Source: Bacteroidales bacterium
Lineage (GTDB): Bacteria; Bacteroidota; Bacteroidia; Bacteroidales; UBA932
Direction: 5' to 3'
NCBI GenBank assembly: GCA_017427885.1
Contig: JAFRRW010000011.1
Span: 372,001 to 436,000 of the forward strand
DNA: 64,000 nucleotides
Shown: piece by piece, positions 14,180 to 34,004 of the stretch
Numbering within the stretch: position 1 is the stretch's first letter
How the letters are laid out: the number at the start of each line of letters is the position of its first letter
Program-made: the position numbers and the translations under genes
Notes under the pieces: generated by a model
Database searches by the model: none
The model's input: the letters and a program-made list of their open reading frames with translations, nothing else
What the model was told of the DNA's origin: nothing

Positions 14180-14413
14180 ATGACAGACATTAAATCCACA
14201 ATCAGGGCGATGCTGGAGGAAGCGCTTCCCCTCGTGAACCTGGATTCGGAATACCTGTTCAGCGAACTCGATTCCCTCGGCGTGACTACAATCCTCATGC
14301 TGCTTTCCGACAAGTACGATATAAAGCTGGACTCTTCCGACGTCACGCCGAAAAATCTCAAATCCCTGGAAAGCCTTGCCGCCCTGGTGGAGAGGAAAAT
14401 AGCCGATAAATGA
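14180..14413 (+). CDS. Acyl carrier protein of the polyene locus (ACP-1)
   Basis: This 77-residue ACP-like protein has a phosphopantetheine site in SELDSLGVTTI, with Ser near residue 32. The motif is LDSLG, a little different from the GxDSL of standard ACP. Its TGA overlaps the ATG of the acyl ligase (ATGA), so the two are translationally coupled and the ligase most likely loads this ACP. This pairing is typical of aryl-polyene starter loading. The sequence is unlike AcpP at the left edge. Confidence 0.88.
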   Translation: MTDIKSTIRAMLEEALPLVNLDSEYLFSELDSLGVTTILMLLSDKYDIKLDSSDVTPKNLKSLESLAALVERKIADK

Positions 14414-15732
14414 CCATAGAGGACCATATCTGGCAGAACGCCTCCGACTTCCCCGGAAAAACCGCCATTGTCTGCGGCGGGGAAAGCTGCACCTATGAAG
14501 AGTTGAAGAGGAGGATTGAGGAAAAGGCAGGAGAATTGTCGGCTAAATACCCTCCGGGACGGATCGTATGCCTGAGGGCCTACCCTGACATCGATTTCCT
14601 TGTCACCTATTTCGCCCTCCACAAGGCCTGCTGCGCCGCGGCGCCTCTTGAAAAGGACATCCCCGAGGCCGCGTTCGAAAGGATATCAGCCGAGATGGCA
14701 GCCCATTCCGTTCCAGAAGGCACCGCCGACATCCTGTATACCACCGGCACCACCGGGAAGTCCAAAGGAGTCATCATTAGCCACCGGACGATAATAGCCG
14801 ACGCAGAGAACCTCATCGCCGGGATGGGCTTCAGCCACGACCTCGCTTTCGTGGTCAACGGGCCGCTGAACCATATCGGGAGCCTTTCGAAGGTCTATCC
14901 CGTCCTGATGCTGGGCGGAACCCTGATCATAGTGAACGGACTCAAGGACTTCGACCTTTTCTTCGGAGCCTTCGATTACCCGGCCGGGAAGTTCGCGACC
15001 TTCCTGGTCCCGGCCAGCATCCGCATCCTGCTCCAGTTCTGCCCTGACAGGCTGGCGGAACTCGCCGGCAGGATGGATTTCATCGAAACCGGCGCCGCTG
15101 CGATGTCCCAGTCTGACATGGAGGCCCTTTGCCGTCTGCTGCCTTACACAAGGATGTACAACACCTATGCATCTACGGAGACCGGCATCATCAGCACCTA
15201 CGACTTCAATGACGGGAAATGTGTTGCCGGCTGTCTCGGACGGCCGATGCCACATTCCTTCTTTTCCATTACTGAGAAAGGACTCCTGGTCTGCGGCGGA
15301 GACACCCTGATGACAGGATATCTCGGAGATCCCGAAAACACCGCAGCCATATTGAGGGACGGCCTGATCCATACCTCCGACATCGGCGCCATAGACAAGG
15401 AAGGAATGCTCCATCTGCTGGGGAGGGAAGACGACGTCATCAACGTCGGAGGCTTCAAGGTCTCTCCCACCGAAGTGGAAGACGCCGCCCTTTCGTTCCC
15501 AGGCATCAGGGATTGCGTGTGCATTGCCGTCGAAAGCCCCATAACCGGGCAGGCCCTGAAACTGCTGGTGGTGACGGCCGACGGAGAAAAACCCGATTGG
15601 AAAGCCTTGGCCCGCCACCTTAAAACAAAACTGGAGACCTACAAGATTCCTATGAATTATGGCTTGACCGACAAGGTATGCAGGACCTTCAACGGGAAGA
15701 TCGACCGCAAGCATTACAGGAACAATGGCTAG
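14410..15732 (+). CDS. AMP-dependent acyl-ACP/CoA ligase (starter-unit loading)
   Basis: This 440-residue member of the ANL adenylating family has motifs in order: the phosphate-binding loop TTGTTGKSKGVIISH (near residue 110), YASTETGIIS (A5-type), HTSDIGAIDKEGMLHLLGR (A7), INVGGFKVSPTEVED (A8) and the closing catalytic Lys motif NGKIDRKHYR. It activates a carboxylic acid with ATP and transfers it to a phosphopantetheine, probably on ACP-1. The relatively short N-terminal domain fits an aryl or short acyl substrate, such as the adenylating ligases of aryl-polyene clusters. The stop shares a CTAG with the stop of the convergent DUF5686 gene. Confidence 0.88.
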   Translation: MTIEDHIWQNASDFPGKTAIVCGGESCTYEELKRRIEEKAGELSAKYPPGRIVCLRAYPDIDFLVTYFALHKACCAAAPLEKDIPEAAFERISAEMAAHSVPEGTADILYTTGTTGKSKGVIISHRTIIADAENLIAGMGFSHDLAFVVNGPLNHIGSLSKVYPVLMLGGTLIIVNGLKDFDLFFGAFDYPAGKFATFLVPASIRILLQFCPDRLAELAGRMDFIETGAAAMSQSDMEALCRLLPYTRMYNTYASTETGIISTYDFNDGKCVAGCLGRPMPHSFFSITEKGLLVCGGDTLMTGYLGDPENTAAILRDGLIHTSDIGAIDKEGMLHLLGREDDVINVGGFKVSPTEVEDAALSFPGIRDCVCIAVESPITGQALKLLVVTADGEKPDWKALARHLKTKLETYKIPMNYGLTDKVCRTFNGKIDRKHYRNNG

Positions 15733-18245
15733 AAATTCAGGTCCATTCCGACCTTGATGCACGAATTGCCGCCGTCGGGATTCCTTCTGGAAAGACGCCA
15801 GGCATAATCTATCCTGAACAGCCTCAATATATTAGAAAGTCCCACGCCTATCTCATAATAAGGGGCTCCCGCAAGGCTCTGCATCCCCGAGACGGGTATT
15901 ATGTCGCTCTCTTCAAGATTGGATGGCCTTATGCTGCCGAAAGCGGCCTTGAAGGAAAGGATCTCCCTCCAGTCCAGTTTCCTTATAAGGGGTATCTTGC
16001 CTAAAATGAGGCCGTCGAAATTGTGTTCGAAAAAGACATTGGCCCATCTGTCGGAGGCGAATTCAAAGTATTGCATGCAGGAGAACGCCGTGTTGTCCGA
16101 GAACAAGCCCTGATTCCCCTCGTGGAGTTTCAGGAAAGTGTATGGGACGTCGCCCCAGATCGTTCCCGCGTTGATGCTGACCATGCTGAACCCGAACGGA
16201 GTGCCGGGGATGTGCCAGTCGATGGATATCTCTCCCCGGATAAAGGGATCTTCATAAAGCCCCTGCCCGGTTTGAACGGGGACCTTCCTGTCCATTGAGA
16301 AAATACCGCCAGTCAGGTCAAGGGAAACGACCGGATATCTGGTAAAAATATGCACCTTGTCGAAAAAGCCCCGGTTGATGCGTTCATCCCAGGCGAAACG
16401 TGCCTTAAGACGCACCTGGGAGGCGTCTACGTAATCCAGGACAGCCCCGTCGCGAAGGTACAGGGGCACCTGTTCATTCCCGTATACGCGGCGGCGTTCC
16501 GCCCTGAAATAGCCTGAAAGTGAACGTGAAAACTCGTGCTCGTAATCAAGCCCATAGCGCATCAGCAACGACTGCCGGTCGTTCCTGTGGCTAGTCAGGG
16601 AGTTGATCATATTATTTCCGGACAGGGCTCCCGTCCCCTGCCCCAGCTGCACGTAATCCTTGGAAAACAACGCTGTCAGCTTCCGCGTCCTGTCCCGGCG
16701 GATGACATACTCCACGGACCCTCCGCCCTTGATTTTCCTGTCGTTGAATCCGTAACCGATCGAACCCGCTAGGCGGATTTTCTGATTGAAATACCGCGTG
16801 GTACGGAAACCCGTCCCGATATGCAGCCCTTCCGTAGGATTGTATGTCACGGTCTGTATCCAGGGACCTATGCCTATCGGGGAATCCTTCCATTCCACAT
16901 ATCCCACGACCAGGGAACGCGTGAACCCGTATAGCGCATTGTATGACGGGGATTCCTGTACCTGCCGTATCGCATCGACTATCTTTTCCTCCCTCGGGGT
17001 AAGGGGTATCGGCCTGTTCGCCGGCCAGTCAAAACCGGCTTCCTGGGGGACGACCGTCACCGGATCGTCATTCCTGCGGTATTCTTCCGGTATTTCCACT
17101 TCAAAAACCGGAGTATCGTACCATTGCCTCCTGTTGCCCAGGAAAGACACCACCTTCGAACTGTCGCTGACGGAAATGGAAAAATCGATGAACACGGTCT
17201 CGTCTTTCGGGAACCACCGTCCCGAGGGCAGACGGGTATAATCCATGCTGTAGTCGACATGGCGGATCCAGTTGACATTCGACCTGTCTGCGAGGCGTAC
17301 TCTCGCCGAACGAATCGCATAATCCTCGGCATCGATGTCAATCTGTCCGTCAAGGGCGGGGGAAGTGACCAGCGGCTTGGGATGGAAGCGCAGGCAATAG
17401 GTTTTCCGGCCCTCTACCATCAAGCTGTCTACAAGGTAATAGTCATAGAAAGGATGGCCGTAAGAAGCGATGGGGGAAGGAAGGCTGAGGTTGAAAAGGG
17501 ATATGTTGTTGTCGTAAAGGTTGGCTTTCAGAAGATGGTGGCCGGAATACCGGGTAAGGATATTGTCGGGGTCCACGCCGGTAATCTGGTTTGCCTTGAT
17601 CACCTCTTTCTCAAGAGACTTTGGCTTGCTGTGAAAAAGGACGGACCTGGTTTCGGAAAGCAGGATGGGATAATACTCGGCGCCGGTCACCGCCGAGGTG
17701 TCCTTGCATTCCTCGATGGGGGCTAGGGCCTTGTGGAACAGCGAACTCTTCACGAGCCACTCCGCATTGGTGGCATCCAGTTCCGTACGGGAATAAAGGT
17801 CCACGGTCCATTCCGGATACTTGTCCGGATTGTGCCCGTCCCGCCTGGCATCCAGCGCTTTAAGGAAACGCTTTATCCTCTCGTTGTTCGGTTTTACGAC
17901 GGCCGCCTGCAATTCGGCCTTGTTCTGCTCCAGCACGAAGTTGACTTCCGTGAAAACCCCGGGAGTTATCTTTATCGACGCCGTATAGTAGCCTATCAGG
18001 CCGGCCTGAAGTTCCAGATGCGACTCATCCCGCGTCTCGAGATAATAACGGCCCTCGAGATCCGTGGAGATACCTATAGTGGAACCGGTGAAATAGACGC
18101 TTGCGAAAGGTATGGGGAGACCGTTCGCAGCATCGGTGACGACCCCGCGGACTTTCGTGACCTGGGCATTTGCGCACAGGCACAGGAAAAGAACGATGGC
18201 CGAAACGAAAAAACTCCTTTCAATATTAGCTGTAAAGCCCCCCAT
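15729..18245 (-). CDS. DUF5686 / carboxypeptidase-regulatory-like outer membrane protein
   Basis: The 838-residue protein has a signal peptide ending near CANAQ. A carboxypeptidase D regulatory-like beta-sandwich follows at residues about 30-115 (VRGVVTDAANGLPIPFASVYF). A DUF5686 region follows, with long beta-rich stretches and a C-terminal set of amphipathic strands ending in IKVGMDLNF, a likely outer-membrane barrel terminus. The function of DUF5686 proteins is unknown. It overlaps the ketoreductase gene by 20 bases, so it is the last gene of the ketosynthase-FAD oxidoreductase-ketoreductase unit. It is the only surface barrel in the locus, which suggests a role in placing or exposing the product; this is inference. 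Confidence 0.82.
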   Translation of the reverse strand: MGGFTANIERSFFVSAIVLFLCLCANAQVTKVRGVVTDAANGLPIPFASVYFTGSTIGISTDLEGRYYLETRDESHLELQAGLIGYYTASIKITPGVFTEVNFVLEQNKAELQAAVVKPNNERIKRFLKALDARRDGHNPDKYPEWTVDLYSRTELDATNAEWLVKSSLFHKALAPIEECKDTSAVTGAEYYPILLSETRSVLFHSKPKSLEKEVIKANQITGVDPDNILTRYSGHHLLKANLYDNNISLFNLSLPSPIASYGHPFYDYYLVDSLMVEGRKTYCLRFHPKPLVTSPALDGQIDIDAEDYAIRSARVRLADRSNVNWIRHVDYSMDYTRLPSGRWFPKDETVFIDFSISVSDSSKVVSFLGNRRQWYDTPVFEVEIPEEYRRNDDPVTVVPQEAGFDWPANRPIPLTPREEKIVDAIRQVQESPSYNALYGFTRSLVVGYVEWKDSPIGIGPWIQTVTYNPTEGLHIGTGFRTTRYFNQKIRLAGSIGYGFNDRKIKGGGSVEYVIRRDRTRKLTALFSKDYVQLGQGTGALSGNNMINSLTSHRNDRQSLLMRYGLDYEHEFSRSLSGYFRAERRRVYGNEQVPLYLRDGAVLDYVDASQVRLKARFAWDERINRGFFDKVHIFTRYPVVSLDLTGGIFSMDRKVPVQTGQGLYEDPFIRGEISIDWHIPGTPFGFSMVSINAGTIWGDVPYTFLKLHEGNQGLFSDNTAFSCMQYFEFASDRWANVFFEHNFDGLILGKIPLIRKLDWREILSFKAAFGSIRPSNLEESDIIPVSGMQSLAGAPYYEIGVGLSNILRLFRIDYAWRLSRRNPDGGNSCIKVGMDLNF

Positions 18246-18954
18246 TGACAGAGATGCATTCTCCGGTTATATAAGAAGCTTCTTCCGAAACAAGGAAACC
18301 GACCACGGCCGCGACCTCTTCAGGACGGCCGAAACGGCCCATAGGGATCGTGCCCTTCAATGCGGCCTCGTCCAGCCCGGCGGTCATATCGGACGCTATA
18401 TACCCCGGCGCGACGGCATTCACCGTGATGTTCTTCCTCGCTATTTCCTGTGCGAGCGCCTTCGTCGCCGAAATCAGGCCTCCCTTGGCTGCGGAATAGT
18501 TGACCTGGCCCGGAAGCCCCTTCAGCCCGGAAAGGGACGAGACGCTGACGATACGCCCTCTCTTCTTTATTATCATAGGCTGAAGAACAAGATGGCAGAT
18601 ATTGAAAAAGCCTTTGAGATTCGTGTCCATCACTGAATCCCATTCCGATTCTTCCATCCAGATCAGCAGGTTGTCCTTGCGGATGCCCGCATTGTTCACG
18701 AACACTTCGATATATTCTTCCGGATTGTTCTTCTGCCACTCCGTGATCGCGGCCTCAGCCGACGCCGAATCGGAGACGTCGAACCGAAGCAACTCCCCGC
18801 TGCCGTCCATTGACTTTATTGACTGAAGGGTCTCTTCCGCAGCTTCCAGGTTTGACACATAGTTGACCAGGACGTGGTATCCCATCTCCGCAAGTTTCAG
18901 GCAGACCGCCCTGCCGATGCCGCGGCTCCCTCCGGTAACAAGTGCAACTCTCAT
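18226..18954 (-). CDS. 3-oxoacyl-ACP reductase (FabG-like SDR)
   Basis: This is a classical short-chain dehydrogenase/reductase of 242 residues. The cofactor loop is TGGSRGIGRAVCLKLAE, with NNAGIRKDNLL next. The catalytic set is Ser in VSVSSLSG and Tyr-x3-Lys in NYSAAKGG. The C-terminal end is ASYITGECISVNGGLYS. These match FabG, which reduces beta-keto-acyl-ACP with NADPH. It is the only ketoreductase in the polyene locus and fits the role of ApeQ in aryl-polyene pathways. The start codon overlaps the stop of the FAD oxidoreductase by 4 bases. Confidence 0.92.
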   Translation of the reverse strand: MRVALVTGGSRGIGRAVCLKLAEMGYHVLVNYVSNLEAAEETLQSIKSMDGSGELLRFDVSDSASAEAAITEWQKNNPEEYIEVFVNNAGIRKDNLLIWMEESEWDSVMDTNLKGFFNICHLVLQPMIIKKRGRIVSVSSLSGLKGLPGQVNYSAAKGGLISATKALAQEIARKNITVNAVAPGYIASDMTAGLDEAALKGTIPMGRFGRPEEVAAVVGFLVSEEASYITGECISVNGGLYS

Positions 18955-20294
18955 ATCGAAAATGTCTGTTTAATGTAATTATAACCAACTATCTGGGCAG
19001 AAGTGTGCAGGGCCGTAACCGACGTGCCCAGGAGTCCGTGAAGCCCGAGGCTCTGCCCGGTCAAATATACATTTTTTATGGGAGTCCTGGTACTGATGAT
19101 CGTGGCAAGTGCGGAATTACAATCCTTTTTCACGCCGAAAGCCGATGCTGAACCGGTGTAACGCTGCCAGGTAAGGGGGGAACTGGTATGAACGGCCCTG
19201 ACCGACCTGCCCAGTTCCGGAATCCGCTTTTCCGCCGCTTGTATAAGTTCCCGGGCCAGACCATCCTTCCATTCCTCGTAACCCTCTTCCCGCGTCGACG
19301 ACCACTCTCTGACAGGTGTCATCAACTCCAGCCTGTCCGCCCACCCGGAACCGTCTTCAGGAACGTTGAAACTGATGAATACACTGTTGTCGATTGTAAT
19401 GTTATGGTTGATGTAACGCAGGGTCTCCGGTTTCAGTTCAATATATGCCGAGAACACGCCGAAGGTGTCTTTCAATCCTGTTATCCTCCGCCTGTAGACA
19501 TCCCTCAGCCCTTCGGTCAGGGAAACCGTCGCCGCCGGGGTCATGCTTGATATTATCGACTCCGCCTTGAAACTCCTGCCTTCCGCAAAGACCTCCCCTT
19601 CCCTGATCCCCGTCACCTCGACCCCTGTCAAAATTTCCCCGCCGTTCCTCTGAACCTGTTCCGCCAACGTCGAAGGGATCAGCGAAGAAGGTCCCTTGAG
19701 CCGCCAGGCGCTTTCAATGAACGAGGCGTTGATCTGCGCATATTCATAGAAAGGGAGAGTGTCCAAATCCATCTCCATCCTCAACCCCATCGAGGACAGC
19801 ACCCTGCGGAGTTGCGGATTGGATATGGTTTCCTGAAGAAACGACCCTGCACTTTTGCTGAACAGGTTGAACTTGTCCGCCGTTATGTCCTTTATGGATT
19901 CCCTTACTTCCCTTAAAGCCCCGGTATATTTTTCAAGTGACTCCCTTTCATCGGGAAAATACTTAAGAAGGCCGCTGACAAACTCCCTGTCTCCGCAAGG
20001 GATGAGAAAACTCCGCCCGTCGAGGATTACTTCCTCGCCACAGTCCAGTTTAACCCACGGCAGGTCCATCAGTCCATGATACCGGAACAGCCACTCCAGC
20101 GGTCCGCCGGCGCCAAGGCCTCCTACGTAATGGAGACCGGTGTCGAAAGAGACTCCCCGGCGGGAAAATCCCTGGAGCATTCCTCCTATCCGGGGCTGTT
20201 TCTCCAGGACGAGGACGCGGCGGCCGCTCCGTGCCAGGATATTGGCACACATCAGTCCGCCGACGCCCGCACCTATGACGATTACGTCATACAT
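18951..20294 (-). CDS. FAD-dependent oxidoreductase, phytoene desaturase/CrtI-like
   Basis: The 447-residue protein starts directly with a dinucleotide-binding loop (VIVIGAGVGGLMCANILARSG), with LEKQPRIGGMLQGF after it. The rest follows the carotenoid desaturase/isomerase and retinol saturase pattern (SFDTGLHYVGG; C-terminal NVYLTGQSLGLHGLLGTSVTAL). Such enzymes desaturate, isomerise or saturate conjugated polyenes. Standard aryl-polyene chemistry does not need one, so it may tailor the polyene chain. It overlaps the upstream ketosynthase by 8 bases and the ketoreductase by 4, so the three are one translational unit. Confidence 0.85.
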   Translation of the reverse strand: MYDVIVIGAGVGGLMCANILARSGRRVLVLEKQPRIGGMLQGFSRRGVSFDTGLHYVGGLGAGGPLEWLFRYHGLMDLPWVKLDCGEEVILDGRSFLIPCGDREFVSGLLKYFPDERESLEKYTGALREVRESIKDITADKFNLFSKSAGSFLQETISNPQLRRVLSSMGLRMEMDLDTLPFYEYAQINASFIESAWRLKGPSSLIPSTLAEQVQRNGGEILTGVEVTGIREGEVFAEGRSFKAESIISSMTPAATVSLTEGLRDVYRRRITGLKDTFGVFSAYIELKPETLRYINHNITIDNSVFISFNVPEDGSGWADRLELMTPVREWSSTREEGYEEWKDGLARELIQAAEKRIPELGRSVRAVHTSSPLTWQRYTGSASAFGVKKDCNSALATIISTRTPIKNVYLTGQSLGLHGLLGTSVTALHTSAQIVGYNYIKQTFSI

Positions 20295-21504
20295 TTCTTA
20301 TGACAAGCGACGAATTGGTCCCTCCGAACCCGAACGAATTGGACAGGAACGTATCGAACCCCCTGTGAATCGTCGAGGATGGGATCAGGAGACGGGCGGT
20401 GTCCTCGTCGGGAGTCTCGAAATTGATGTTCCCGGCGATGAATCCGTCCTTCATCATCAGGATAGAATAGATGACCTCGCTTGCTCCGGCCATCCACATC
20501 TCGTGCCCCGTCTGGCTTTTGGTGCTGGTAACGGGAATCCGGCTGTCACCAAATACCTGATATATGGCCTTTGCCTCGTTGGCATCGCCCACCTGGGTGG
20601 ACGTGGCGTGGGCGTTGATGTACCCAATGTCGTTTATGGACAGGCCCGACTGGCGGATGGCCATCTCAAGGGAACGGGCGGGGCCGTTCACGTTCGGGGT
20701 GGAGATATGGTCTCCGTTGGAGGAAAAGCCATAGCCTATGACTTCGGCGATTATCCGGGCTCCTCTTTTTCTTGCGCTTTCATAGCTTTCCAGCACGACA
20801 GTCGCCGCACCCCCGCTGGGCACCAGGCCGTCCCTGTGCAGGTCGAAAGGGCGGCTTGCCGCGGAAGGATCGTCTTCCCTCGTCGAAAAGGCGGAGATTC
20901 CGTCAAAAGAGCCGGTGGCGGCCTCGTTGATTTCCTGGGCGCCTCCGCAGACGACTATGTCCTGCAGCCCGTTCCGGATGAGCAGGCTTCCCCATCCAAT
21001 CGAGTGGGATCCGCTTGCGCAGGCGGCGGAGAGGGTGAGGTTGATTCCCTTCAGATGGAAAATGACACCGAGGTTCATCGAGACCGTCGAATTCATCGAC
21101 TGGAAAATCGCCCCGGAGCCGCAGAGCATCGTATCCTTTTTCTCATTGATCTTCGACACCGACTGATATACGGCGTCGGCGGAACTGTCGTTGCCGTAAA
21201 TCAGGCCGACGTCGTGATTCTCCAGGTATTCCCCGTCGATTCCCGCCCAGGCCAGGGCGTCCCTTGTCGCACAATAGGCATATTGCGCCTGTTCGGGCAT
21301 ATATGCCCGCTGCGAACGGGGCAGTTCCTTCTTCAGGTCAGGCGCAGGGACGGAACCGGTCAGACCGGATCGGAATCCGTGCTCCTTGCGCATAGGGTCG
21401 AAAACAATCCCGGAGACGCCCCTGTACAGGGCGTCTCTGACGGAATCCAATGTCTGGCCAAGGCAGGAATAGATACCCATTCCCGTGATGACAACGCGGT
21501 TCAT
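20287..21504 (-). CDS. Beta-ketoacyl-ACP synthase (FabF/FabB-like, KS-1)
   Basis: This is a 405-residue condensing enzyme of the KAS I/II type. It keeps the full Cys-His-His set: Cys162 in SAACASGSHS, His in NAHATSTQVGD and His in TGHEMWMAGASE. The C-terminal glycine signature SNSFGFGGTNSSLV is intact. It extends acyl-ACP by decarboxylative condensation with malonyl-ACP. It leads a separate four-gene unit (KS-1, FAD oxidoreductase, ketoreductase, DUF5686) behind a -7 element at 21534-21527. It may prime or extend, while the other two ketosynthases are in the main operon. Confidence 0.92.
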   Translation of the reverse strand: MNRVVITGMGIYSCLGQTLDSVRDALYRGVSGIVFDPMRKEHGFRSGLTGSVPAPDLKKELPRSQRAYMPEQAQYAYCATRDALAWAGIDGEYLENHDVGLIYGNDSSADAVYQSVSKINEKKDTMLCGSGAIFQSMNSTVSMNLGVIFHLKGINLTLSAACASGSHSIGWGSLLIRNGLQDIVVCGGAQEINEAATGSFDGISAFSTREDDPSAASRPFDLHRDGLVPSGGAATVVLESYESARKRGARIIAEVIGYGFSSNGDHISTPNVNGPARSLEMAIRQSGLSINDIGYINAHATSTQVGDANEAKAIYQVFGDSRIPVTSTKSQTGHEMWMAGASEVIYSILMMKDGFIAGNINFETPDEDTARLLIPSSTIHRGFDTFLSNSFGFGGTNSSLVIRNV

Positions 21505-21510
21505 ATCAGC

Positions 21511-21528
21511 TGTCAGTTATTTCTGACA
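21511..21528. repeat. TGTCAG/CTGACA inverted repeat upstream of KS-1
   Basis: Two 6-base arms (21511-21516 and 21523-21528) are separated by 6 bases and sit at the predicted transcription start of the KS-1 unit. No T-tract follows on the minus strand, so a terminator is unlikely. It may be an operator or an mRNA 5' hairpin. Confidence 0.35.
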
Positions 21529-21534
21529 AAGTTA
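21527..21534 (-). promoter_or_regulatory. -7 element for the KS-1/FAD/ketoreductase/DUF5686 unit
   Basis: TAACTTTG on the minus strand fits TAnnTTTG, in the short gap between the hydrolase stop (21538) and the KS-1 start (21504). No clear -33 is seen in the upstream coding DNA. It would let these four genes be expressed apart from the 15-gene operon. Confidence 0.5.
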
Positions 21535-21537
21535 GCA

Positions 21538-26895: not shown

Positions 26896-26897
26896 TG

Positions 26898-27425: not shown

Positions 27426-27778
27426 TTTGTGATAAGTACGCAGCCCGTTATGATCAGGAACACACCTATCCATTGCTCCCACGAAACCGACTCCTTGAAG
27501 ATGAGCATTGCGGCGAACATCCCGAAGAGATAGCTCAGGCAGGACAGCGGATAGGCTATGCCGAATGGATAATGCTTGAGGATGAACATCCACAGGACCG
27601 TCGCCACCCCGAACGCTATCCCGCAGCCCAGGAACCACCAGTTCGTCAGCTGGGCCCTGAAGAAATTCCACGTCCAACTGAAGGGACCCGCCGCCGAAAG
27701 GGCTATTTTCAAAAGAACCTGACCTCCGCAGAGAAAAAGGCTCTGCAGGATTGCCAGAGGAATCAGTTTAGAATACAT
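27422..27778 (-). CDS. Half-size EamA/DMT-family transporter (four membrane segments)
   Basis: The 118-residue membrane protein has four hydrophobic helices, for example LIPLAILQSLFLCGGQVLL, WWFLGCGIAFGVATVLWMFIL and WIGVFLIITGCVLI. It matches half of a ten-helix EamA protein and is like ArnE/ArnF or SMR proteins, which work as dimers. The start MYSKLIPL (27778) overlaps the upstream CLF-like gene by 11 bases; a further start at 27820 is less likely. Its position beside LolA, GT2 and an exporter suggests flipping of a lipid-linked intermediate. The substrate is not known. Confidence 0.78.
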   Translation of the reverse strand: MYSKLIPLAILQSLFLCGGQVLLKIALSAAGPFSWTWNFFRAQLTNWWFLGCGIAFGVATVLWMFILKHYPFGIAYPLSCLSYLFGMFAAMLIFKESVSWEQWIGVFLIITGCVLITK

Positions 27779-28361
27779 AGTCGCTCGAATTAAATGGTGG
27801 TGCGATTTCCCTGACAGCACCGTTCCCGTCGGAGGAAAGTACCATCGATACTGCCCTGTCTTCCAATGTTATGCCAATGGAACGCAGGGACTCCGCGCAG
27901 AGAGGCTCTTCCTCGTCGAACCAGCCGACCAGGGCGGTTTCAATCTCTCCCGAGCGTATCTGCATCCAGGCGTCAAGCAGGGCGCTTTCCAGGGAGGACC
28001 CGCGATGGGAATAGGTGGTGTTGTAGCCGTGGCAATGGAGATAGACGGCGATTACGGAACTGATCGTATTATGCGTCGACTGCATGAAATGGATCGGACG
28101 CATCGGCGTGTCGTCCAAAGCCAGGGCCGCTTTCAGGAACTCGACGGAATTCACGATGCAGCCATAATCGGTCGCCGTTATGATCGCGTCGGGAATTTCG
28201 ATACCGGCCTGTCCCAACGCCTCTTTCGAGGTCCAGACGGCGCGTTTCAGCAGGCGTCCCATCCGCCTGGCCTCCATCGGGGAAAGCACACTGCGGAAGT
28301 CTGGGTCGTTCCCGCCCAGGCACACGATCGATTTCAGATATACCTTCCTATTGCCGGTCAT
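27768..28361 (-). CDS. Ketosynthase-like chain length factor (inactive condensing enzyme subunit)
   Basis: The 197-residue protein matches the N-terminal half of the condensing-enzyme fold (PF13723 type). The nucleophile Cys is absent: the elbow reads FMQSTHNTISSVIAVY (residues 92-107) where ketosynthases have T-A-C-S-S. The later catalytic His motifs are also absent because the C-terminal half is missing. In type II polyketide and aryl-polyene systems such a chain length factor pairs with an active ketosynthase and sets chain length. It overlaps KS-2 by 14 bases, so KS-2 is the natural partner. Confidence 0.84.
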   Translation of the reverse strand: MTGNRKVYLKSIVCLGGNDPDFRSVLSPMEARRMGRLLKRAVWTSKEALGQAGIEIPDAIITATDYGCIVNSVEFLKAALALDDTPMRPIHFMQSTHNTISSVIAVYLHCHGYNTTYSHRGSSLESALLDAWMQIRSGEIETALVGWFDEEEPLCAESLRSIGITLEDRAVSMVLSSDGNGAVREIAPPFNSSDYVF

Positions 28362-29514
28362 AACGGGACAGGATTAAAGAAGAATCATTCCCTCCGAATC
28401 CGAAAGAATTGCACAGGACGTGCCTGACGGGTTTTCTTTCACCGGACGCCGGCATGATACACGCCGGATCGGGGGTGCTGAAATTGAGTTGGGGGAAAAC
28501 GATTCCCTCCCGGATGGCCAGCAGGCAGAAAACGGCTTCAATGGAGCCGGAGGCGCTTGTGGTATGCCCCGTGTATGCCTTGGTGGACGAAACGGGAGGT
28601 ATATTATCCTTGAACACGCGTCGCAATGCCGCGCTTTCTGAAGCGTCGTTGTTGACGGTGCCGGTACCGTGCGCATTGACATAGTCGATGTCTGCGGCGG
28701 TCAGGCCGGAAGAGGCCAGCGCTTTCTCCATCGCAAGGAACGCCCCGTCCCCGTTCTCGGAGGATGCTGTCTGATGGAAGGCGTCGCAGGCGTTTCCTCC
28801 GCCGCTTACAATCCCCAGCACGGGCGCTTCCCGACGCAACGCCGCAGATTCCTCTTCCAAAATCAGGTACGCCGCACCCTCCCCAAGGTTCAATCCCGCG
28901 CGGGAGGCATCGAACGGCCTGCAGCACTGCCCGTCCAGAATCATCAGCGAGTTGAAACCGTTGAGATGGAAGTTGGACAGTGCTTCCGCACCGCCGACCG
29001 CCACCCTTTCATAAAGGCCGTTCCTGATCAGGTTCGCCCCGAACAATATGGCATTCAACGCCGACGAGCAGGCCGTCGAGACCGTCGTCGAAGACGAAAT
29101 CACGCTGAACTGCGAGGCAATCGCTTCCGTCGAAGCGCCGCAGTCGTGGTATTTAGAAAATGACGGGAAACTCAATTCGGTCTTATCCATCCCGCCGACG
29201 GTCGTCCCGGATATGAGAGGGAAGGGCCCGACCTTGTCGTCCGACAGGAGACGGGACTGTTCCAACGCCTCCCGAAGGGCAAGGATACCCAGAAGGGAAG
29301 ACCGCGGATATTCTTCGTCCAAGCCGAGGCGGCTGCATATCAGGGCGTTTGAAACTGGAACCTCTCCGACCGGCTTGTCCCTGAGGGTTGTCGAAAGGAA
29401 TCGGACGGGGGCTATTCCGGACTTATGTGCTTCCAGGGCGGCAAGATTCTCTTCCTTGCCGCAGCCCAGGGCGCTGACCACGCCCGCTCCAGTTATGACA
29501 ATCCTCTCTTTCAC
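28348..29514 (-). CDS. Beta-ketoacyl-ACP synthase (KS-2)
   Basis: This 388-residue FabF-like condensing enzyme keeps the full active site: Cys149 in VSTACSSALNA, His in NAHGTGTVNND and His in AYTGHTTSASGSIE. SNSFGFGGNDSS closes the active site. Its stop overlaps the chain-length-factor gene start, and its start abuts the stop of ACP-2, so a KS/CLF/ACP core is translated from one stretch of mRNA. This is probably the main chain-elongating ketosynthase, in the role of ApeO. Confidence 0.92.
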   Translation of the reverse strand: MKERIVITGAGVVSALGCGKEENLAALEAHKSGIAPVRFLSTTLRDKPVGEVPVSNALICSRLGLDEEYPRSSLLGILALREALEQSRLLSDDKVGPFPLISGTTVGGMDKTELSFPSFSKYHDCGASTEAIASQFSVISSSTTVSTACSSALNAILFGANLIRNGLYERVAVGGAEALSNFHLNGFNSLMILDGQCCRPFDASRAGLNLGEGAAYLILEEESAALRREAPVLGIVSGGGNACDAFHQTASSENGDGAFLAMEKALASSGLTAADIDYVNAHGTGTVNNDASESAALRRVFKDNIPPVSSTKAYTGHTTSASGSIEAVFCLLAIREGIVFPQLNFSTPDPACIMPASGERKPVRHVLCNSFGFGGNDSSLILSRYDRQ

Positions 29515-29775
29515 TTACTTCGTCCTGTTGGCGGCAACGTAGTCCGCTATGACGGCAAAACTCTGGAAAACCTTCCTCCCCTCCTGGGGCGAGGCAAGGC
29601 GTATGCCATAATTCTTCTCGAGAAGGATCAGCAGTTCCAGGACATCGATTGAATCGAGACCAAGGCCTTCGGCCCCGAACAAGGGGGCGTGATCGTCAAT
29701 GTCTTCGGGAGTCATCCCGTCGAGATTAAGGGTCTCTATGACCTTTTCCTTCAATTCCCTGATTAAATCATCCAT
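29515..29775 (-). CDS. Acyl carrier protein of the polyene locus (ACP-2)
   Basis: The 86-residue ACP has the site GLGLDSIDVLELLILLEKNY with Ser near residue 42. It starts MDDLIRELKEKVIETLNLDG and is more acidic than ACP-1. It sits between the KS-like protein and KS-2, without a gap on the KS-2 side. It probably carries the growing chain or malonyl units, while ACP-1 goes with the ligase. Confidence 0.92.
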   Translation of the reverse strand: MDDLIRELKEKVIETLNLDGMTPEDIDDHAPLFGAEGLGLDSIDVLELLILLEKNYGIRLASPQEGRKVFQSFAVIADYVAANRTK

Positions 29776-29784
29776 ACTCTGAAT

Positions 29785-30276
29785 CTATTTTTCAACCAAT
29801 GATACTTGACATTCCCATTCTGTCTCCGTCCGGCAGTCTATCCAGGCGACTATCGCGGAACCGGTCTTCCGGTCCTGAAAGACATCCCCGACTATCGAAC
29901 GTATTCTCTCAAAATCATATTTTTCAATGATGAAGGCCGCTGTCTCCCCTTCGTAGCGGTTCCGTATCGCAATCTCCCCGCTGACTATGTTCGGGAGGGT
30001 ATATACGAAGAGTGCGGGGGAAGGGTAGTCGTCAATAGTCCCGGAATAATGCCTGTCGTCGCACTCGCACCCGAACCGGCTGAATGTAAGGACGGCACGG
30101 TCCTCCCGGGGCACGAACCGGTCGGGGTCGGACTTGAGCAGCAATTCCGTCCCCAGGAAACCCAGCTTGCAGAGGATGTCCATCTTGAAAAACTTGGGAT
30201 ATTCCTCCATCTGTTCCCTGTACAATGCCACCAGGTCCGTCCCTGACGGGATATTCACTGTGCGGATCACTCTCAT
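29785..30276 (-). CDS. Degenerate ketosynthase-like protein of unknown role
   Basis: This 163-residue protein is not readily named. It begins MRVIRTVNIPSGTDLV. A segment SPALFVYTLPNIVSGEIAI (near residues 87-105) resembles the nucleophile-elbow region of condensing enzymes, followed by RNRYEGETAAFIIE. No Cys is at the elbow and no His motifs follow, so it cannot condense by itself. I infer a second CLF-like half of the thiolase fold, which might pair with KS-3, the gene it overlaps by 4 bases (ATGA). It could also be an unrelated fold; confidence in function is low, in the gene high. Confidence 0.65.
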   Translation of the reverse strand: MRVIRTVNIPSGTDLVALYREQMEEYPKFFKMDILCKLGFLGTELLLKSDPDRFVPREDRAVLTFSRFGCECDDRHYSGTIDDYPSPALFVYTLPNIVSGEIAIRNRYEGETAAFIIEKYDFERIRSIVGDVFQDRKTGSAIVAWIDCRTETEWECQVSLVEK

Positions 30277-31370
30277 ACCCTGCCTCCTTTCCTGAACAGC
30301 AACGCTCCGTTGACGCCGCCGAATCCCGACATCAGCTTGATGAAGGCCCTTCCTTCACAGGGCCGTTCCTCCGATGAGATGTTCACGTGACGGGAAACCC
30401 CGATTTCCGAGAAACCCCTGGTCGGAAGGACGACGCCGTCCTCGCACGAAAGGATCGAAAGGATTGATTCGATCACTCCGGCGGCACCCATTGTGTGGCC
30501 GAGGAATCCCTTGAGGCTGTTTATCGGTATATCGCCGAGACCCGCACGGTCAAGGGCGACGGCTTCCATCTCGTCATTGAACAACGTGGCCGTCCCGTGA
30601 ACGTTCACGAACGCGAGATCCTTTACGTCGATGGAATCCAAGACATAACGGAGCACCTTGTAACTGCCCTCTCCGGTCCTGGAAGGACTTGATATATGGT
30701 AGGCGTCATTCCGGACGGCTCCGTCGGCGATCTCCCAGCCTTCTTCTGAGCGTCCCAGGACAATGGCCGCCGAAGCCTCGCCCAGGTTCAGTCCGTCGCG
30801 GGAGTCGTCGAACGGCTTGCAAGGAGAGGCCGAAACAGCCTTCAACGACTGGAATCCGGATATGATGAAACGCGACTGGACTTCCGCCCCTATGACGACG
30901 GCGTAGTCGCACCTCCCGGAAAGGAGCATCCGGCGCCCCTGCAACAACGCGGCCAGGCCGGAGATGCAGGCGTTCGAGACGACCAGCGGAGGATTGGGAT
31001 TATGAAAATATGAAGCAATCCTTGCCGCGGACTCCGCAATCGAATAATCGCTTTCTTCGGATCCCAGCGCCTCGATGTTGCCTTTTATGGTCGAAAGGAT
31101 GAATGAGACCCGGGGCGAGGAAGGATCGATACCGGAAGCCTCGATCGCCTGAGAGGCGGCTTTGATGCCTATGGTGTCAAAAAAAGAAAGATTGTCCAGG
31201 ACGGACCGGTCTTCGAAGAGGGAGACGACGGCGTCCTGTCCCAGGGGAGAACCCTGAGGAAGGAGCCCGAGTGCGGATTCCCCTTTCCGGACGGCCTCAT
31301 ATGTTTGACGCGCCGTCTGTCCGAGAGGGGTAAGGGCCCCATATCCAAGACAAGCTATCCTATCCTTCAT
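30273..31370 (-). CDS. Beta-ketoacyl-ACP synthase (KS-3)
   Basis: The 365-residue condensing enzyme is shorter and more divergent than KS-1 and KS-2 but keeps the triad: Cys135 in VVSNACISGLA, His in NVHGTATLFND and His in GFLGHTMGAAGVIE. The glycine signature is FGGVNGAL. The elbow NACISG differs from TACSS, suggesting a different acyl substrate. It overlaps the ATP-free hotdog dehydratase gene upstream by 11 bases and the degenerate KS-like gene by 4, so a KS-3/KS-like pair parallels the KS-2/CLF pair. Confidence 0.9.
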   Translation of the reverse strand: MKDRIACLGYGALTPLGQTARQTYEAVRKGESALGLLPQGSPLGQDAVVSLFEDRSVLDNLSFFDTIGIKAASQAIEASGIDPSSPRVSFILSTIKGNIEALGSEESDYSIAESAARIASYFHNPNPPLVVSNACISGLAALLQGRRMLLSGRCDYAVVIGAEVQSRFIISGFQSLKAVSASPCKPFDDSRDGLNLGEASAAIVLGRSEEGWEIADGAVRNDAYHISSPSRTGEGSYKVLRYVLDSIDVKDLAFVNVHGTATLFNDEMEAVALDRAGLGDIPINSLKGFLGHTMGAAGVIESILSILSCEDGVVLPTRGFSEIGVSRHVNISSEERPCEGRAFIKLMSGFGGVNGALLFRKGGRV

Positions 31371-31791
31371 CCTTGATCACCGTTTTAATCTGGGCTCCCG
31401 CAATTTTCTCTTCCCCGCAATATACATTGACTTCGGCCAGGCTGATGCCCATCATCTCGTGAAGAAGACGCACCTCCGTGGTCAGCACGTCCCCGCTCCC
31501 GGGATGACGGGAGATGGAAAAGTCCCTTACCTGTCCGAGCATCCCTATCTGAATGGGAACGTGAAGGATATATTTGGAAACATACCCGACCCTCGCCGCC
31601 ATCGCCTGGGCCATATGCTCGATGACGCCTGCCGAACTCAGGACTCCGTTTTCTATCAACACGCCCTCCGACGGAACAGCATACCGCACGACCGTGACGG
31701 CATCGTCAAAAGAAACGACACTGTCGATGAAAACGAACGGAGGCTGCTGTAGAAGGACGTCCTTTGCAAGGACCGGAGTAAACGTCGTCAT
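31360..31791 (-). CDS. Hotdog dehydratase, Glu-bearing half (ApeP/FabZ-like)
   Basis: The 143-residue hotdog protein begins with QPPFVFIDSVVSFDDAV. Where FabZ has HFPGxPxxPGV it has VLIENGVLSSAGV, so the catalytic His is missing. The following IEHMAQAMAARVGY keeps the Glu. This complements the dehydratase at 26569, which has the His but a Gln in place of the Glu. Aryl-polyene ApeP proteins show the same FIENG-type pattern. It probably dehydrates 3-hydroxyacyl-ACP only in complex with the 26569 protein. Confidence 0.85.
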   Translation of the reverse strand: MTTFTPVLAKDVLLQQPPFVFIDSVVSFDDAVTVVRYAVPSEGVLIENGVLSSAGVIEHMAQAMAARVGYVSKYILHVPIQIGMLGQVRDFSISRHPGSGDVLTTEVRLLHEMMGISLAEVNVYCGEEKIAGAQIKTVIKDEG

Positions 31792-32669
31792 GCCCAGAAA
31801 TCATAAAAGTTATACCACTGGGCAGGATACCGTCTGACAATCTCTTCCAGGTGCCGGGCATAGGCGTCGCACAGGGTCTGGACGGAATCGGCCCGGGAAA
31901 GTCCCTTTGTGTCGGGCAATTGGAAGACGAACGCCCTGTATTTGCGGATGCTCTCTTTCATTACGAAGACCGCTATTTCCGGCAGGTCCCTCTGCACCGC
32001 TATGAGAAAAGGTCCCGCCGGAAAAGAGGCCTTCTGGCCGAAGAAATCGCTCCGGACGGTGCGTTCGGCCCCGAAAACCCGGTCACCCGGGATGGATACG
32101 ATTTCTCCATTTTCAAGGGCGTTGTTAATGGCAAATATATGTGACAGGTCCTCCCGGATGGGAATCATCTGAATGTTCGTTTCAGAAAAGCAGTCCCGGC
32201 GGCCCCGCATCACGGTTTCAGCTTCCCCGGAATAAACCAGCGCATTTATCCTCTTCGACGCTTTCAGGAAATATCCGGCAAGTTCGTAATTGCCAACGTG
32301 AGAGCTCAGCGTTACGAAACCCGAGTCCCTGCCGCACAGGGTGTCATACCCTTCCTTGCCTTCCGTCTCGATCTCGAAGGTTTTTCCCGCATAGGCGGCG
32401 AACCTGTCTATGACGACCTTCCCGAGGTTATACTCATTGACAAAAGTCATCAGGAACGACTTGACTGCTCCATATCCTATCCGCTTCCTGTAGAAACGGT
32501 AGGAATCCTTGAAGCCGTTTGCGAAGAGTATGTAAAAAGGGATGGTGAGGGACATCACGGCATATATCACCCACAAGGGGAAAATCCGGATCAACCGGAT
32601 GAGCGTCCGCTGCATCCAGGGTGTTCCGTCCGTTTTGCCTCTCCAGGCCTTATTTAACCCGTCAGCCAA
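31788..32669 (-). CDS. LpxL/HtrB-type lysophospholipid acyltransferase
   Basis: The 293-residue protein matches the lipid A late acyltransferase family. It has an N-terminal membrane anchor (IFPLWVIYAVMSLTIPFYILF), the catalytic HX4E motif in TLSSHVGNYELAG, GDRVFGAERTVRSDFFG and a C-terminal AQWYNFYDFW. Family members move an acyl chain from ACP to a lipid on the inner face of the inner membrane. In an aryl-polyene locus the role would be to pass the polyene from ACP to a lipid anchor. It overlaps ACP-3 by 8 bases, which fits direct use of that ACP. Confidence 0.88.
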   Translation of the reverse strand: MADGLNKAWRGKTDGTPWMQRTLIRLIRIFPLWVIYAVMSLTIPFYILFANGFKDSYRFYRKRIGYGAVKSFLMTFVNEYNLGKVVIDRFAAYAGKTFEIETEGKEGYDTLCGRDSGFVTLSSHVGNYELAGYFLKASKRINALVYSGEAETVMRGRRDCFSETNIQMIPIREDLSHIFAINNALENGEIVSIPGDRVFGAERTVRSDFFGQKASFPAGPFLIAVQRDLPEIAVFVMKESIRKYRAFVFQLPDTKGLSRADSVQTLCDAYARHLEEIVRRYPAQWYNFYDFWA

Positions 32670-32916
32670 GTTTCTCCGAGATAAAGTTGCAAAAATCGTC
32701 GAATGTCTTTATCTGCTTGAAATCCTCAGGTTTCATCTTGAACCCGAATTCCTGGTCCACAAGCACGACCACGTCGACGATCTCCAGCGAATCAATGCCC
32801 AGATCGTCTTTCAGGCGGGCGTCGCCCTGTATCTTGTCCTCTTCTATCTCAAGCTCGTTTACAAGAAAATCTATTACCTTTTTTTCGATTTCGTTCAAAG
32901 TCATCTTTATCGTCAT
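32662..32916 (-). CDS. Acyl carrier protein of the polyene locus (ACP-3)
   Basis: The 84-residue ACP has the site DDLGIDSLEIVDVVVLVDQEF with Ser near residue 43. The first ATG (32916) overlaps the stop of the methyltransferase in an ATGA; a second in-frame Met at residue 5 is possible. It is the closest of the three locus ACPs to standard ACP. It lies between the O-methyltransferase and the LpxL-type acyltransferase. Confidence 0.92.
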   Translation of the reverse strand: MTIKMTLNEIEKKVIDFLVNELEIEEDKIQGDARLKDDLGIDSLEIVDVVVLVDQEFGFKMKPEDFKQIKTFDDFCNFISEKLG

Positions 32917-34004
32917 TTGGTTTTACAAATCAATATGCTGTGTCCCTGTCCCAGGCCGTCGTGGATGGACTCGACTTCCAAAGATGCGGCATCGATGAGG
33001 CGGATCATGTCGTCCGAATGATACATCTTCGAATTGCCGTTCGCCATCACGGTAAAATACAGGGAGGTCATAGTCAGGCAGAATGCGGCGGGCTCGAAGC
33101 GCTGACGGTCCCAGAACGTTTCCATTATGCACAGCCTCGTTTCCGGACGCATGATCTTCGAGATTCGCGTAAGGATGGAGAGTATCTCCTCCTCGGAGAA
33201 ACAGTCCAGAAACTGGCTCATCCATATCACGTCGGGATCGAGGTCGTCGGGAAAAGCGGCGTCGGGCGACAGCATGTTCATCGGACGGCCGTGGATGCGG
33301 TCCGCCCCGGCCGAGCCTGCGACCGCCTTCCTCATCATTTCCAGCTGCTGGGGCAGGTCTATGATCGTGACCTCCACCTTCGGATCGTATGCCACGCACT
33401 GGCGGGCCCACAGACCGGTGTTTCCGCCGACGTCCAGGATGCGTGAGGGGTGCAGTGAAAACACTATTTCCAACGCCTCGTCGAACGAACTGTTGGAATA
33501 GAAATGGTCGAAGCCGAACCAGCTTCTCTTGACCTGGTCGGGCAGGGAAGAAAGGGCCTCGTAGATCGTGGGCCAGTCCCCGAAATGCTCAAGGCCGGCC
33601 GGACGCCCTTCGTTCAGGGCCTCCTCGAGACGGAAGAATCCCTCGTAGTTCACGTCGTGGACGAAATCCACGTTGACACGGGTCGCCGGATCGTTCAGCA
33701 AAAACCAGCCGACCTTCGAAAGGGAGTAAGTGTCTTTCTCCGGGTCGACCAGTACCGTGCCTATCGAAAGGGACGCCTCCAGGAGGACCTTGACCGCATA
33801 CTGGCTCAACGAAGTCGCAGCGGAAATCTCCTCTATTTTCATCTCCTTGTCCCTGAGCATATCCAGTATGCCATATTTCAGCATCATACGGCTTACCTGG
33901 AACACGATTGGGCCGAAAGCGATAAACTCCGCAGAGCGTTGCGCCTCCCTCGCCGTCAAATGATCCTGCGAATATGCCTTGGATAAACTTGGAAATAAAT
34001 TCAT
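32913..34004 (-). CDS. SAM-dependent O-methyltransferase (plant-type/CrtF-like)
   Basis: The 363-residue protein has an N-terminal helical dimerisation domain with a winged-helix part (YGILDMLRDKEMKIEEISAATSLSQYAV). The SAM-binding loop is ILDVGGNTGLWARQ near residue 170, with IIDLPQQ after it and DVIWMSQFLDCFSEEE. This is the pattern of O-methyltransferases such as CrtF and plant COMT. It would methylate a hydroxyl on the aryl or polyene head. The start is ATG 34004; a TTG at 34031 is excluded as it lies in the predicted promoter. It is the first gene of the 15-gene operon. Confidence 0.88.
   Translation of the reverse strand: MNLFPSLSKAYSQDHLTAREAQRSAEFIAFGPIVFQVSRMMLKYGILDMLRDKEMKIEEISAATSLSQYAVKVLLEASLSIGTVLVDPEKDTYSLSKVGWFLLNDPATRVNVDFVHDVNYEGFFRLEEALNEGRPAGLEHFGDWPTIYEALSSLPDQVKRSWFGFDHFYSNSSFDEALEIVFSLHPSRILDVGGNTGLWARQCVAYDPKVEVTIIDLPQQLEMMRKAVAGSAGADRIHGRPMNMLSPDAAFPDDLDPDVIWMSQFLDCFSEEEILSILTRISKIMRPETRLCIMETFWDRQRFEPAAFCLTMTSLYFTVMANGNSKMYHSDDMIRLIDAASLEVESIHDGLGQGHSILICKTK

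What the first reader, a model, noticed from the sequence alone, without database searches (positions are those of the whole stretch)
14180..34004. Large aryl-polyene/flexirubin-type locus with an unusual gene set
Seen: three intact ketosynthases, two CLF-like proteins, two dehydratases, one ketoreductase, three ACPs, one ligase, LpxL-type and PlsC acyltransferases, LolA, MMPL, GT2, O-methyltransferase. Known: this set matches aryl-polyene/flexirubin clusters of Gram-negative bacteria. Inference: a membrane-bound conjugated polyene. Unlike the textbook loci it has a CrtI-like oxidoreductase, a DUF5686 barrel, an EamA half-transporter and a secreted hydrolase, and it lacks DarA/DarB, an aromatic ammonia-lyase and a thioesterase.
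Basis: partly seen in the sequence, partly recalled or inferred. Interest (0 to 1): 0.75.

Follow-up and report, generated by a model that had tools for sequence, protein, structure and literature searches.

The report
Polyene pigment cluster with swapped starter
This Bacteroidales genome carries a flexirubin/aryl-polyene pigment gene cluster of a known kind, but the two genes that normally supply its first building block from tyrosine are replaced by a different ligase with its own carrier protein, and the same replacement is seen in other lineages of the order.

Summary
The oddity is the start of the pathway. FlxA (tyrosine ammonia-lyase) and FlxY (coumarate ligase) are missing; an unrelated ligase with its own carrier protein (ACP3-LIG) is present. 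Among 74 FlxJ genomes FlxY was found in 65 and LIG in exactly the other 9; FlxA in none of the 9; 7 of the 9 show no aromatic amino-acid lyase. A FlxJ tree needs 3 changes, one inside the window's genus. In the window and 8 relatives a ferulic-acid-esterase-like gene directly precedes ACP3-LIG. Best reading: an exchanged priming module that loads an aryl acid straight onto ACP3. Salvage of plant hydroxycinnamate is plausible, unproven. New variant of a known kind.

The parts
11619..12842 (-). PlsC407: PlsC-like acyltransferase, recurrent neighbour (probable cluster member)
   Evidence: Pfam PF01553 21.2 bits, just below the 23-bit cut-off; homologue in 45 of 80 LIG loci and in G016, G215, G483, G535, G805
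12872..14176 (+). EST434: CE1/ferulic-acid-esterase-like enzyme with a signal-like N-terminus (by eye), first gene of the starter operon
   Evidence: Pfam Esterase; best PDB match 6rzn ferulic acid esterase E=1.6e-73; Ser and His motifs kept in all 9 aligned operon copies
14180..14413 (+). ACP3: starter carrier protein, DSL phosphopantetheine motif
   Evidence: Pfam PP-binding 26.7 bits; beside LIG in 9 of 9 LIG genomes; within 700 bp of LIG in 76 of 80 database loci
14410..15732 (+). LIG: AMP-forming ligase found where FlxA and FlxY are missing
   Evidence: AMP-binding and AMP-binding_C; present in exactly the 9 of 74 FlxJ genomes without FlxY
15729..18245 (-). DUF5686 protein with CarboxypepD_reg domain
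   Evidence: Pfam PF18939, PF13715
18226..18954 (-). FlxB ketoreductase
   Evidence: NCBIfam NF053542 389 bits, cut-off 340
18951..20294 (-). CrtI/CrtD-like FAD oxidoreductase
   Evidence: Pfam Amino_oxidase; CrtD model below cut-off; homologues in FlxA/FlxY clusters
20287..21504 (-). KS405 ketosynthase (ApeR-like)
   Evidence: Pfam; Cys motif; 34% to E. coli ApeR
21538..22398 (-). HYD286: BD-FAE type alpha/beta hydrolase with a signal-like N-terminus (by eye)
   Evidence: Pfam PF20434; in 42 of 80 LIG loci; next to FlxY in G016, G215, G657, G677
22388..25816 (-). MMPL exporter fused to PlsC-type acyltransferase
   Evidence: Pfam MMPL and Acyltransferase in one ORF
25813..26565 (-). GT2 glycosyltransferase
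   Evidence: Pfam
26569..26895 (-). DH108: ApeI-like dehydratase
   Evidence: Pfam ApeI-like 23.2 bits, below the 28.5 cut-off; 22% to E. coli ApeI, E=2e-8
26898..27425 (-). LolA-like carrier (LolA2-type); start put at the ATG before the signal-like peptide, by reading
   Evidence: NCBIfam LolA2_flexi 78.7 bits, cut-off 125; Pfam LolA
27422..27820 (-). EamA half-size transporter
   Evidence: Pfam EamA 40.5 bits, cut-off 28.2
27768..28361 (-). CLF197: chain-length-factor-like, no active-site Cys motif
   Evidence: Pfam Ketoacyl-synt_2; hhalign to KS388 97.3%
28348..29514 (-). KS388 ketosynthase (ApeO-like)
   Evidence: Pfam; active-site motifs; 32% to E. coli ApeO
29515..29775 (-). ACP2 (ApeE-like, 52%)
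29785..30276 (-). U163: second, weakly CLF-like protein
   Evidence: hhalign to CLF197 73.7%, E 2.9e-5; lies in one ORF with KS365 in G056, G060, G129, G215
30273..31370 (-). KS365 ketosynthase
   Evidence: Pfam; active-site motifs
31360..31791 (-). DH143: FabZ/ApeP-like dehydratase
   Evidence: NCBIfam FabZ 21 bits, cut-off 113; 28% to ApeP, E=2e-5
31788..32669 (-). LpxL-type acyltransferase
   Evidence: Pfam Lip_A_acyltrans
32662..32916 (-). ACP1 (ApeF-like, 37%)
32913..34031 (-). FlxJ-family methyltransferase
   Evidence: NCBIfam NF053543 578 bits, cut-off 560; 47.6% to E. coli ApeB

Best explanation
A flexirubin/aryl-polyene type II PKS cluster whose priming step has been replaced as a module. 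In C. pinensis flexirubin synthesis FlxA makes 4-coumarate from tyrosine and FlxY makes coumaroyl-CoA. Here an unrelated AMP-forming ligase (LIG) adenylates an aromatic acid and loads it straight onto its own carrier protein (ACP3). The KS/CLF, KR and DH enzymes then extend it with malonyl units to a conjugated polyene, FlxJ methylates the aryl head, acyltransferases put the acid on a lipid, and LolA plus the MMPL exporter move it to the outer membrane. Shown by sequence: the ACP3-LIG pair, its mutual exclusion with FlxY, repeated switching on a core-gene tree, and similarity patterns that fit horizontal exchange. Inferred: ligase activity and direct ACP loading (by analogy with ApeH-ApeE), a para-hydroxyphenyl starter (because FlxJ is kept), and all later steps. 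Most speculative (about 0.35): the acid is scavenged plant hydroxycinnamate released by the esterase EST434, and perhaps HYD286.
For: FlxB/FlxJ over cut-offs. 74 FlxJ genomes: FlxY (E <= 1e-120) in 65, LIG (E <= 1e-40) in exactly the other 9 (9e-12 if independent, which they are not). Among the 64 at least 90% complete and at most 5% contaminated: 59 FlxY, 5 LIG. FlxA (E <= 1e-150) in 0 of the 9 and 55 of the other 65. No aromatic lyase found in 7 of the 9; G000 and G633 have only HutH in a hut operon. ACP3 beside LIG in 9 of 9 and within 700 bp in 76 of 80. FlxJ tree: 3 changes, as many as the starred branches force; the window groups with FlxY-bearing genus-mates G003 and G016 at 99/98; one clade weakly rejected, AU p=0.032. 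For GT2, MMPL, HYD286, CrtI and PlsC407 the window is 45-58% identical to G016 and 30-53% to rumen-type loci L115, L117, L118, L119, but its ACP3 and LIG (and EST434 in L115) are 60-69% identical to those loci. Where G016 has FlxA (between KR and CrtI) and FlxY (beside HYD286), the window genes overlap by 4 bp or lie 33 bp apart.
Against: No chemistry. The substrate of LIG is unknown: its best PDB matches are NRPS adenylation domains, ahead of 2-succinylbenzoate, feruloyl-CoA and 4-coumarate ligases, so an amino acid or another acid is not excluded. LIG lies on the FlxJ contig in 6 of the 9 genomes; in G633, G746 and G775 it is on another contig, next to an MMPL homologue in two of them. LIG was sought only in FlxJ-bearing genomes. 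EST434 is directly upstream in only 7 of 80 loci, plus the window and G060, so the module does not need it. HYD286 also accompanies clusters that have FlxA and FlxY. The own genome is 81% complete, and G535, G633 and G713 are 86-89%. The exclusion rests on about three label changes, too few for a sign test, and these may be one gain and two losses. 11 of 80 LIG loci show no core gene in the fetched flanks.
Confidence: 0.78

Rival explanations
1. ACP3-LIG primes the polyene with 4-hydroxybenzoate or another acid made in the cell (as ApeH does in E. coli-type aryl polyenes), not with a dietary hydroxycinnamate.
For: ApeH loads 4-HBA directly onto an ACP (PMC8253772, passages); FlxJ is 47.6% identical to ApeB and ACP2 52% to ApeE, so the core tolerates a 4-HBA pathway.
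Against: LIG is not close to ApeH (23% over 116 aa), within 11 kb of LIG in eight of the nine genomes (the script stopped before printing G060), showed no shared starter-making gene. Chorismate lyase was not searched for.
Confidence: 0.35
2. LIG activates a non-aryl acid or an amino acid, so the product is not an aryl polyene but another lipid-bound polyene.
For: Best profile matches are NRPS adenylation domains; a stand-alone ligase with its own small carrier protein resembles DltA-DltC (recalled).
Against: FlxJ, the presumed head-group methyltransferase, is present in all 9 LIG genomes, though the sample was chosen for it.
Confidence: 0.15
3. Plain flexirubin cluster with FlxA, FlxY and DarA/B elsewhere in the unassembled 19% of the genome; ACP3-LIG is an unrelated neighbour.
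For: Genome 81% complete; in many FlxY genomes FlxY lies on another contig than FlxJ.
Against: Five LIG genomes are at least 90% complete and also lack FlxY; 9 of 9 match; at least one polyene-cluster gene lies near LIG in 69 of 80 loci.
Confidence: 0.07

Closest known systems
Flexirubin (flx) cluster of Chitinophaga pinensis / Flavobacterium johnsoniae (PMC3992019, parts 1-2 read)
   Same: Several ketosynthases, ketoreductase, dehydratases, LolA, glycosyltransferase, exporter and acyltransferase as described there; FlxB and FlxJ by NCBIfam models
   Different: No FlxA, FlxY or DarB found; no 4HBT thioesterase or LolB2 homologue in the locus; EST434-ACP3-LIG instead.
Aryl polyene cluster of E. 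coli CFT073 (apeA-R)
   Same: Homologues of ApeB (47.6%), ApeE (52%), ApeQ (43%), ApeR (34%), ApeO (32%), ApeJ (35%), weaker of ApeI and ApeP; ACP-loading logic resembles ApeH-ApeE
   Different: LIG is not close to ApeH; an extra ACP, a CrtI-like gene, DUF5686 and esterases; no ApeK-like thioesterase. Letters for genes other than L-R were given by gene order
Bacteroides xylanisolvens arylpolyene BGC called flexirubin-like (PMC12940132, passages)
   Same: Gut Bacteroidales member of the same kind
   Different: Its starter genes are not described in the passages seen; not compared here

Membership tests
Flexirubin (flx) cluster | FlxB-type ketoreductase and FlxJ-type methyltransferase | tested here: met
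   389 bits against cut-off 340; 578 against 560
Flexirubin (flx) cluster | Tyrosine ammonia-lyase FlxA | tested here: not met
   Only HutH (337 bits, cut-off 700) in a hut operon; genome 81% complete
Flexirubin (flx) cluster | 4-coumarate ligase FlxY | tested here: not met
   Best own match 225 bits, cut-off 520; genome 81% complete
Flexirubin (flx) cluster | Dialkylresorcinol enzymes DarA/DarB | tested here: not met
   DarB best own match 29.7 bits, cut-off 550; DarA not searched
Flexirubin (flx) cluster | LolA2 carrier | tested here: inconclusive
   78.7 bits, cut-off 125
Flexirubin (flx) cluster | Pigment is an aryl polyene esterified to dialkylresorcinol | not testable with these tools
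   needs chemistry
Aryl polyene (APE) cluster | KS/CLF pair, ApeQ-type KR, two dehydratases, ApeE/F-type ACPs | tested here: met
   CLF197 has no BLAST match to ApeC, and the dehydratase matches are weak
Aryl polyene (APE) cluster | Aryl-ACP ligase ApeH | tested here: not met
   LIG vs ApeH 23% over 116 aa, E=6e-6; function could be analogous
Aryl polyene (APE) cluster | Conjugated aryl polyene product | not testable with these tools
   needs chemistry

The most novel reading that the evidence does not exclude
Several lineages of gut and rumen Bacteroidales gave up making the aromatic head of their membrane polyene and instead scavenge it from plant cell walls: a secreted esterase frees p-coumarate or ferulate and a dedicated ligase-ACP pair, passed between species as a cassette, feeds it straight into the polyene synthase, tying a protective pigment to the host's diet.
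Probability: 0.3. Interest if true: 0.72.

Novelty: new variant of a known kind. Interest (0 to 1): 0.5.

Why it matters
[quoted passage not shown] A one-for-one exchange of the priming unit suggests that these pathways are modular, changes what head group and label source to expect, and gives a simple genomic marker (ACP3-LIG versus FlxA/FlxY) that may split the clusters into two chemotypes. If the starter is dietary, a bacterial envelope pigment would depend on what the host eats.

Tried and rejected
CrtI-like gene as the novelty: rejected, since homologues sit in clusters with FlxA and FlxY. DUF5686, EamA and hydrolase as foreign genes: rejected; they recur in relatives. A local TAL under another name: rejected for the held genome; the only lyase is HutH between urocanase and imidazolonepropionase genes (named by reading the translations; G633's copy by comparison). 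HYD286 as the TAL substitute: rejected as a general rule, because G016 and G657 have HYD286 together with FlxA and FlxY. EST434 as an obligatory part: rejected (in 8 of 80 loci, 7 of them directly upstream of ACP3, the eighth on the other strand at 29% identity). A shared starter-making gene beside LIG: none seen, whose script ended in an error before printing G060. Independent-pairs sign test: only 3 pairs, no power. LIG substrate from PDB similarity: uninformative. Structure prediction: not available.

Literature (search listings). In these listings I saw no paper on this ligase-ACP replacement; only open-licence PMC papers are held. Read: PMC3992019 (parts 1-2 of 5 of the text); passages only of PMC12940132, PMC9662046, PMC6469967, PMC8253772, PMC11885536, PMC10904984.
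Full report
What is there. The order is Bacteroidales: two genomes that the tool calls same-order (G483, G746) have ligases identical to loci titled Bacteroidales bacterium. The genus is unnamed and the habitat of the window itself is unknown. From 34031 down to 15729 on the minus strand 19 genes run head to tail, most of them overlapping by a few bases and none more than 33 bp apart. On the plus strand three coupled genes, EST434 (12872-14176), ACP3 (14180-14413) and LIG (14410-15732), run towards them. A PlsC-like gene (11619-12842) faces away from EST434. The locus is therefore about 22 kb, 11619-34031.

What kind of locus it is. The ketoreductase scores 389 bits against NCBIfam FlxB (cut-off 340) and the methyltransferase 578 bits against FlxJ (cut-off 560). 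LolA matches the flexirubin LolA2 model below its cut-off (78.7 of 125). Against the E. coli CFT073 aryl-polyene cluster (letters for genes outside L-R given by gene order) the window has homologues of ApeB (47.6%), ApeE (52%), ApeQ (43%), ApeR (34%), ApeO (32%), ApeJ (35%), and weaker ones of ApeI and ApeP. KS405, KS388 and KS365 keep the active-site cysteine motif; CLF197 lacks it; U163 resembles CLF197 by profile comparison (73.7%, E 2.9e-5) but not full ketosynthases.

What is not unusual. Clusters in other Bacteroidota were laid beside the window. CrtI-like genes stand beside the MMPL gene in G385 and G278, which also hold FlxA (849 and 854 bits; cut-off 700) and FlxY (676 and 634 bits; cut-off 520). 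EamA and the BD-FAE hydrolase recur in several Bacteroidales clusters. DUF5686 adjoins the cluster of genus-mate G016. DarB passed its cut-off in 4 of 19 FlxJ genomes and came close in 2. FlxJ occurs in 68 of 393 genomes sampled from the order at E <= 1e-60, so the cluster type is widespread but patchy; in the window's own genus it was found in 7 of 37 genomes.

What is unusual. The window lacks FlxA and FlxY. G016 (same genus) has FlxA between KR and CrtI, and FlxY beside the hydrolase; in the window those junctions are closed (4-bp overlap and 33 bp). I put together 74 FlxJ genomes (68 plus 6 same-genus genomes). FlxY at E <= 1e-120 is in 65 (64 over the cut-off, G002 with a fragment). A homologue of LIG at E <= 1e-40 is in 9: G000, G060, G483, G535, G633, G713, G746, G775, G805, exactly the nine without FlxY. 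Among the 64 genomes at least 90% complete and at most 5% contaminated the split is 59 to 5. FlxA at E <= 1e-150 is in 55 of the 65 FlxY genomes and none of the nine. A search for any aromatic amino-acid lyase (PF00221, E <= 0.001) in the nine found none in seven; the window's genome and G633 have one each, HutH inside a hut operon. The ten FlxY genomes without FlxA are G002, G003, G013, G025, G215, G474, G547, G572, G625 and G677; five of these (G002, G013, G215, G547, G677) show no lyase either. The Fisher value of 9e-12 overstates independence. LIG is on the same contig as FlxJ in six of the nine; in G633, G746 and G775 it is on another contig. LIG was not sought in genomes without FlxJ.

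Independent switches. A FlxJ tree of 77 rows (74 plus 3 outgroup genomes; none dropped) needs three changes of the LIG/FlxY label, as many as its well-supported branches force: the f180 group, the f25/f128 group, and the window alone, which sits with FlxY-bearing genus-mates G003 and G016 (99/98). The direction is not fixed: three changes may be one gain and two losses. The program flags one long row (G802) and one with odd composition (G657, next to the f25/f128 group). Holding the nine as one clade is weakly rejected (AU p=0.032). A sign test on three pairs has no power.

The module seems to travel. ACP3 is next to LIG in 9 of 9 genomes. 79 of the 80 titles name Bacteroidales or Bacteroidia taxa and one says only uncultured bacterium; many name rumen or gut samples. 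Named strains include Prevotella aurantiaca JCM 15754, Phocaeicola intestinalis, Caecibacteroides pullorum, Prevotella sp. AGR2160 and Prevotella conceptionensis. At least two of the 80 (L148, L164) carry the same ligase as G483 and G746. In these 80 loci (4.7 to 21 kb, often cut by contig ends) ACP3 lies within 700 bp of LIG in 76 and was found in 78; at least one of 16 cluster genes lies in the flanks in 69 and at least three in 60; FlxA and FlxY in none. EST434 is in 8, directly before ACP3 in 7. For the five core genes that can be compared (GT2, MMPL, HYD286, CrtI, PlsC407) the window is 45-58% identical to G016 and 30-53% to L115, L117, L118 and L119, yet its ACP3 and LIG, and EST434 in L115, are 60-69% identical to those loci; in G060 the module (50-59%) is no closer than the core (29-64%). 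A LIG tree (86 of 88 sequences; two were short; G775 not entered) puts the window's ligase among Prevotellaceae- and Bacteroidaceae-titled rows with moderate support and no starred set. The simplest reading is horizontal exchange of EST434-ACP3-LIG or ACP3-LIG into a resident cluster.

How it probably works. In C. pinensis FlxA makes 4-coumarate from tyrosine and FlxY makes coumaroyl-CoA (PMC3992019). In aryl-polyene pathways ApeH adenylates 4-hydroxybenzoate and loads it directly onto an ACP without a CoA intermediate (PMC8253772, passages). LIG is close to neither ligase by BLAST (23% over 116 aa, E about 1e-6, to ApeH; no significant match to FlxY), and ACP3 is additional to the ApeE-like ACP2 and ApeF-like ACP1. 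I infer that LIG charges ACP3 directly. Because FlxJ, whose relatives are thought to methylate a 4-hydroxyphenyl head, is retained, a para-hydroxyphenyl starter is the best guess. Elongation, reduction, dehydration, lipid attachment and export follow from the other enzymes and are inferred.

Where the starter comes from. With no TAL found, the acid must be taken up or made another way. EST434 has a signal-like N-terminus, resembles crystallised ferulic acid esterases (6rzn, E=1.6e-73), keeps the Ser and His motifs in all nine aligned operon copies, and heads the ACP3-LIG operon in the window, G060 and 7 of 80 other loci. That makes salvage of plant hydroxycinnamate attractive. Against it: most LIG loci lack EST434 nearby, and PDB similarity does not single out a substrate. 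I give this part about 0.35. I did not search for chorismate lyase.

Verdict. The locus is a new variant of a known kind: a flexirubin/aryl-polyene cluster with an exchanged priming module.

Noticed in passing
G016, G215, G657, G677 clusters (L047, L061, L113/L114, L111): The BD-FAE hydrolase gene sits next to the FlxY ligase gene in FlxY-type clusters, so an exported esterase may belong to the starter step in both types.
   Followed up: partly
G013, G215, G547, G677 (and incomplete G002): FlxY-bearing genomes in which no aromatic amino-acid lyase was found; how they obtain coumarate is open.
   Followed up: no
25813-26565 and 27422-27820: GT2 plus EamA half-transporter here, and GT2 plus polysaccharide deacetylase in FlxA/FlxY cluster G385, recall the ArnC/ArnD/ArnE logic of lipid-linked sugar modification (recalled); the polyene lipid might be glycosylated.
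   Followed up: no
22388-25816: MMPL exporter and PlsC acyltransferase are one 1142-aa protein; the versions in G385 and G278 are 1290 and 1283 aa.
   Followed up: no
L109:7600-9096: In G775 the ligase gene beside an intact ACP3 is split over two frames: a decayed copy or an assembly error.
   Followed up: no
L115:11310: A distant DUF5686 relative (21%) also follows LIG in locus L115.
   Followed up: no
L159: Prevotella aurantiaca (name means orange; recalled) carries ACP3-LIG with polyene-cluster genes; PMC9662046 (passages) lists it with the pigmented P. intermedia group, so the cause of its colour is untested.
   Followed up: partly
40824-49679 and 57594-59837: Neighbouring genes include GH92, GH31 and GH3 glycosidases and a tricorn-type protease.
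   Followed up: no
61126-63672: 848-aa ORF without a Pfam match at 1e-10.
   Followed up: no
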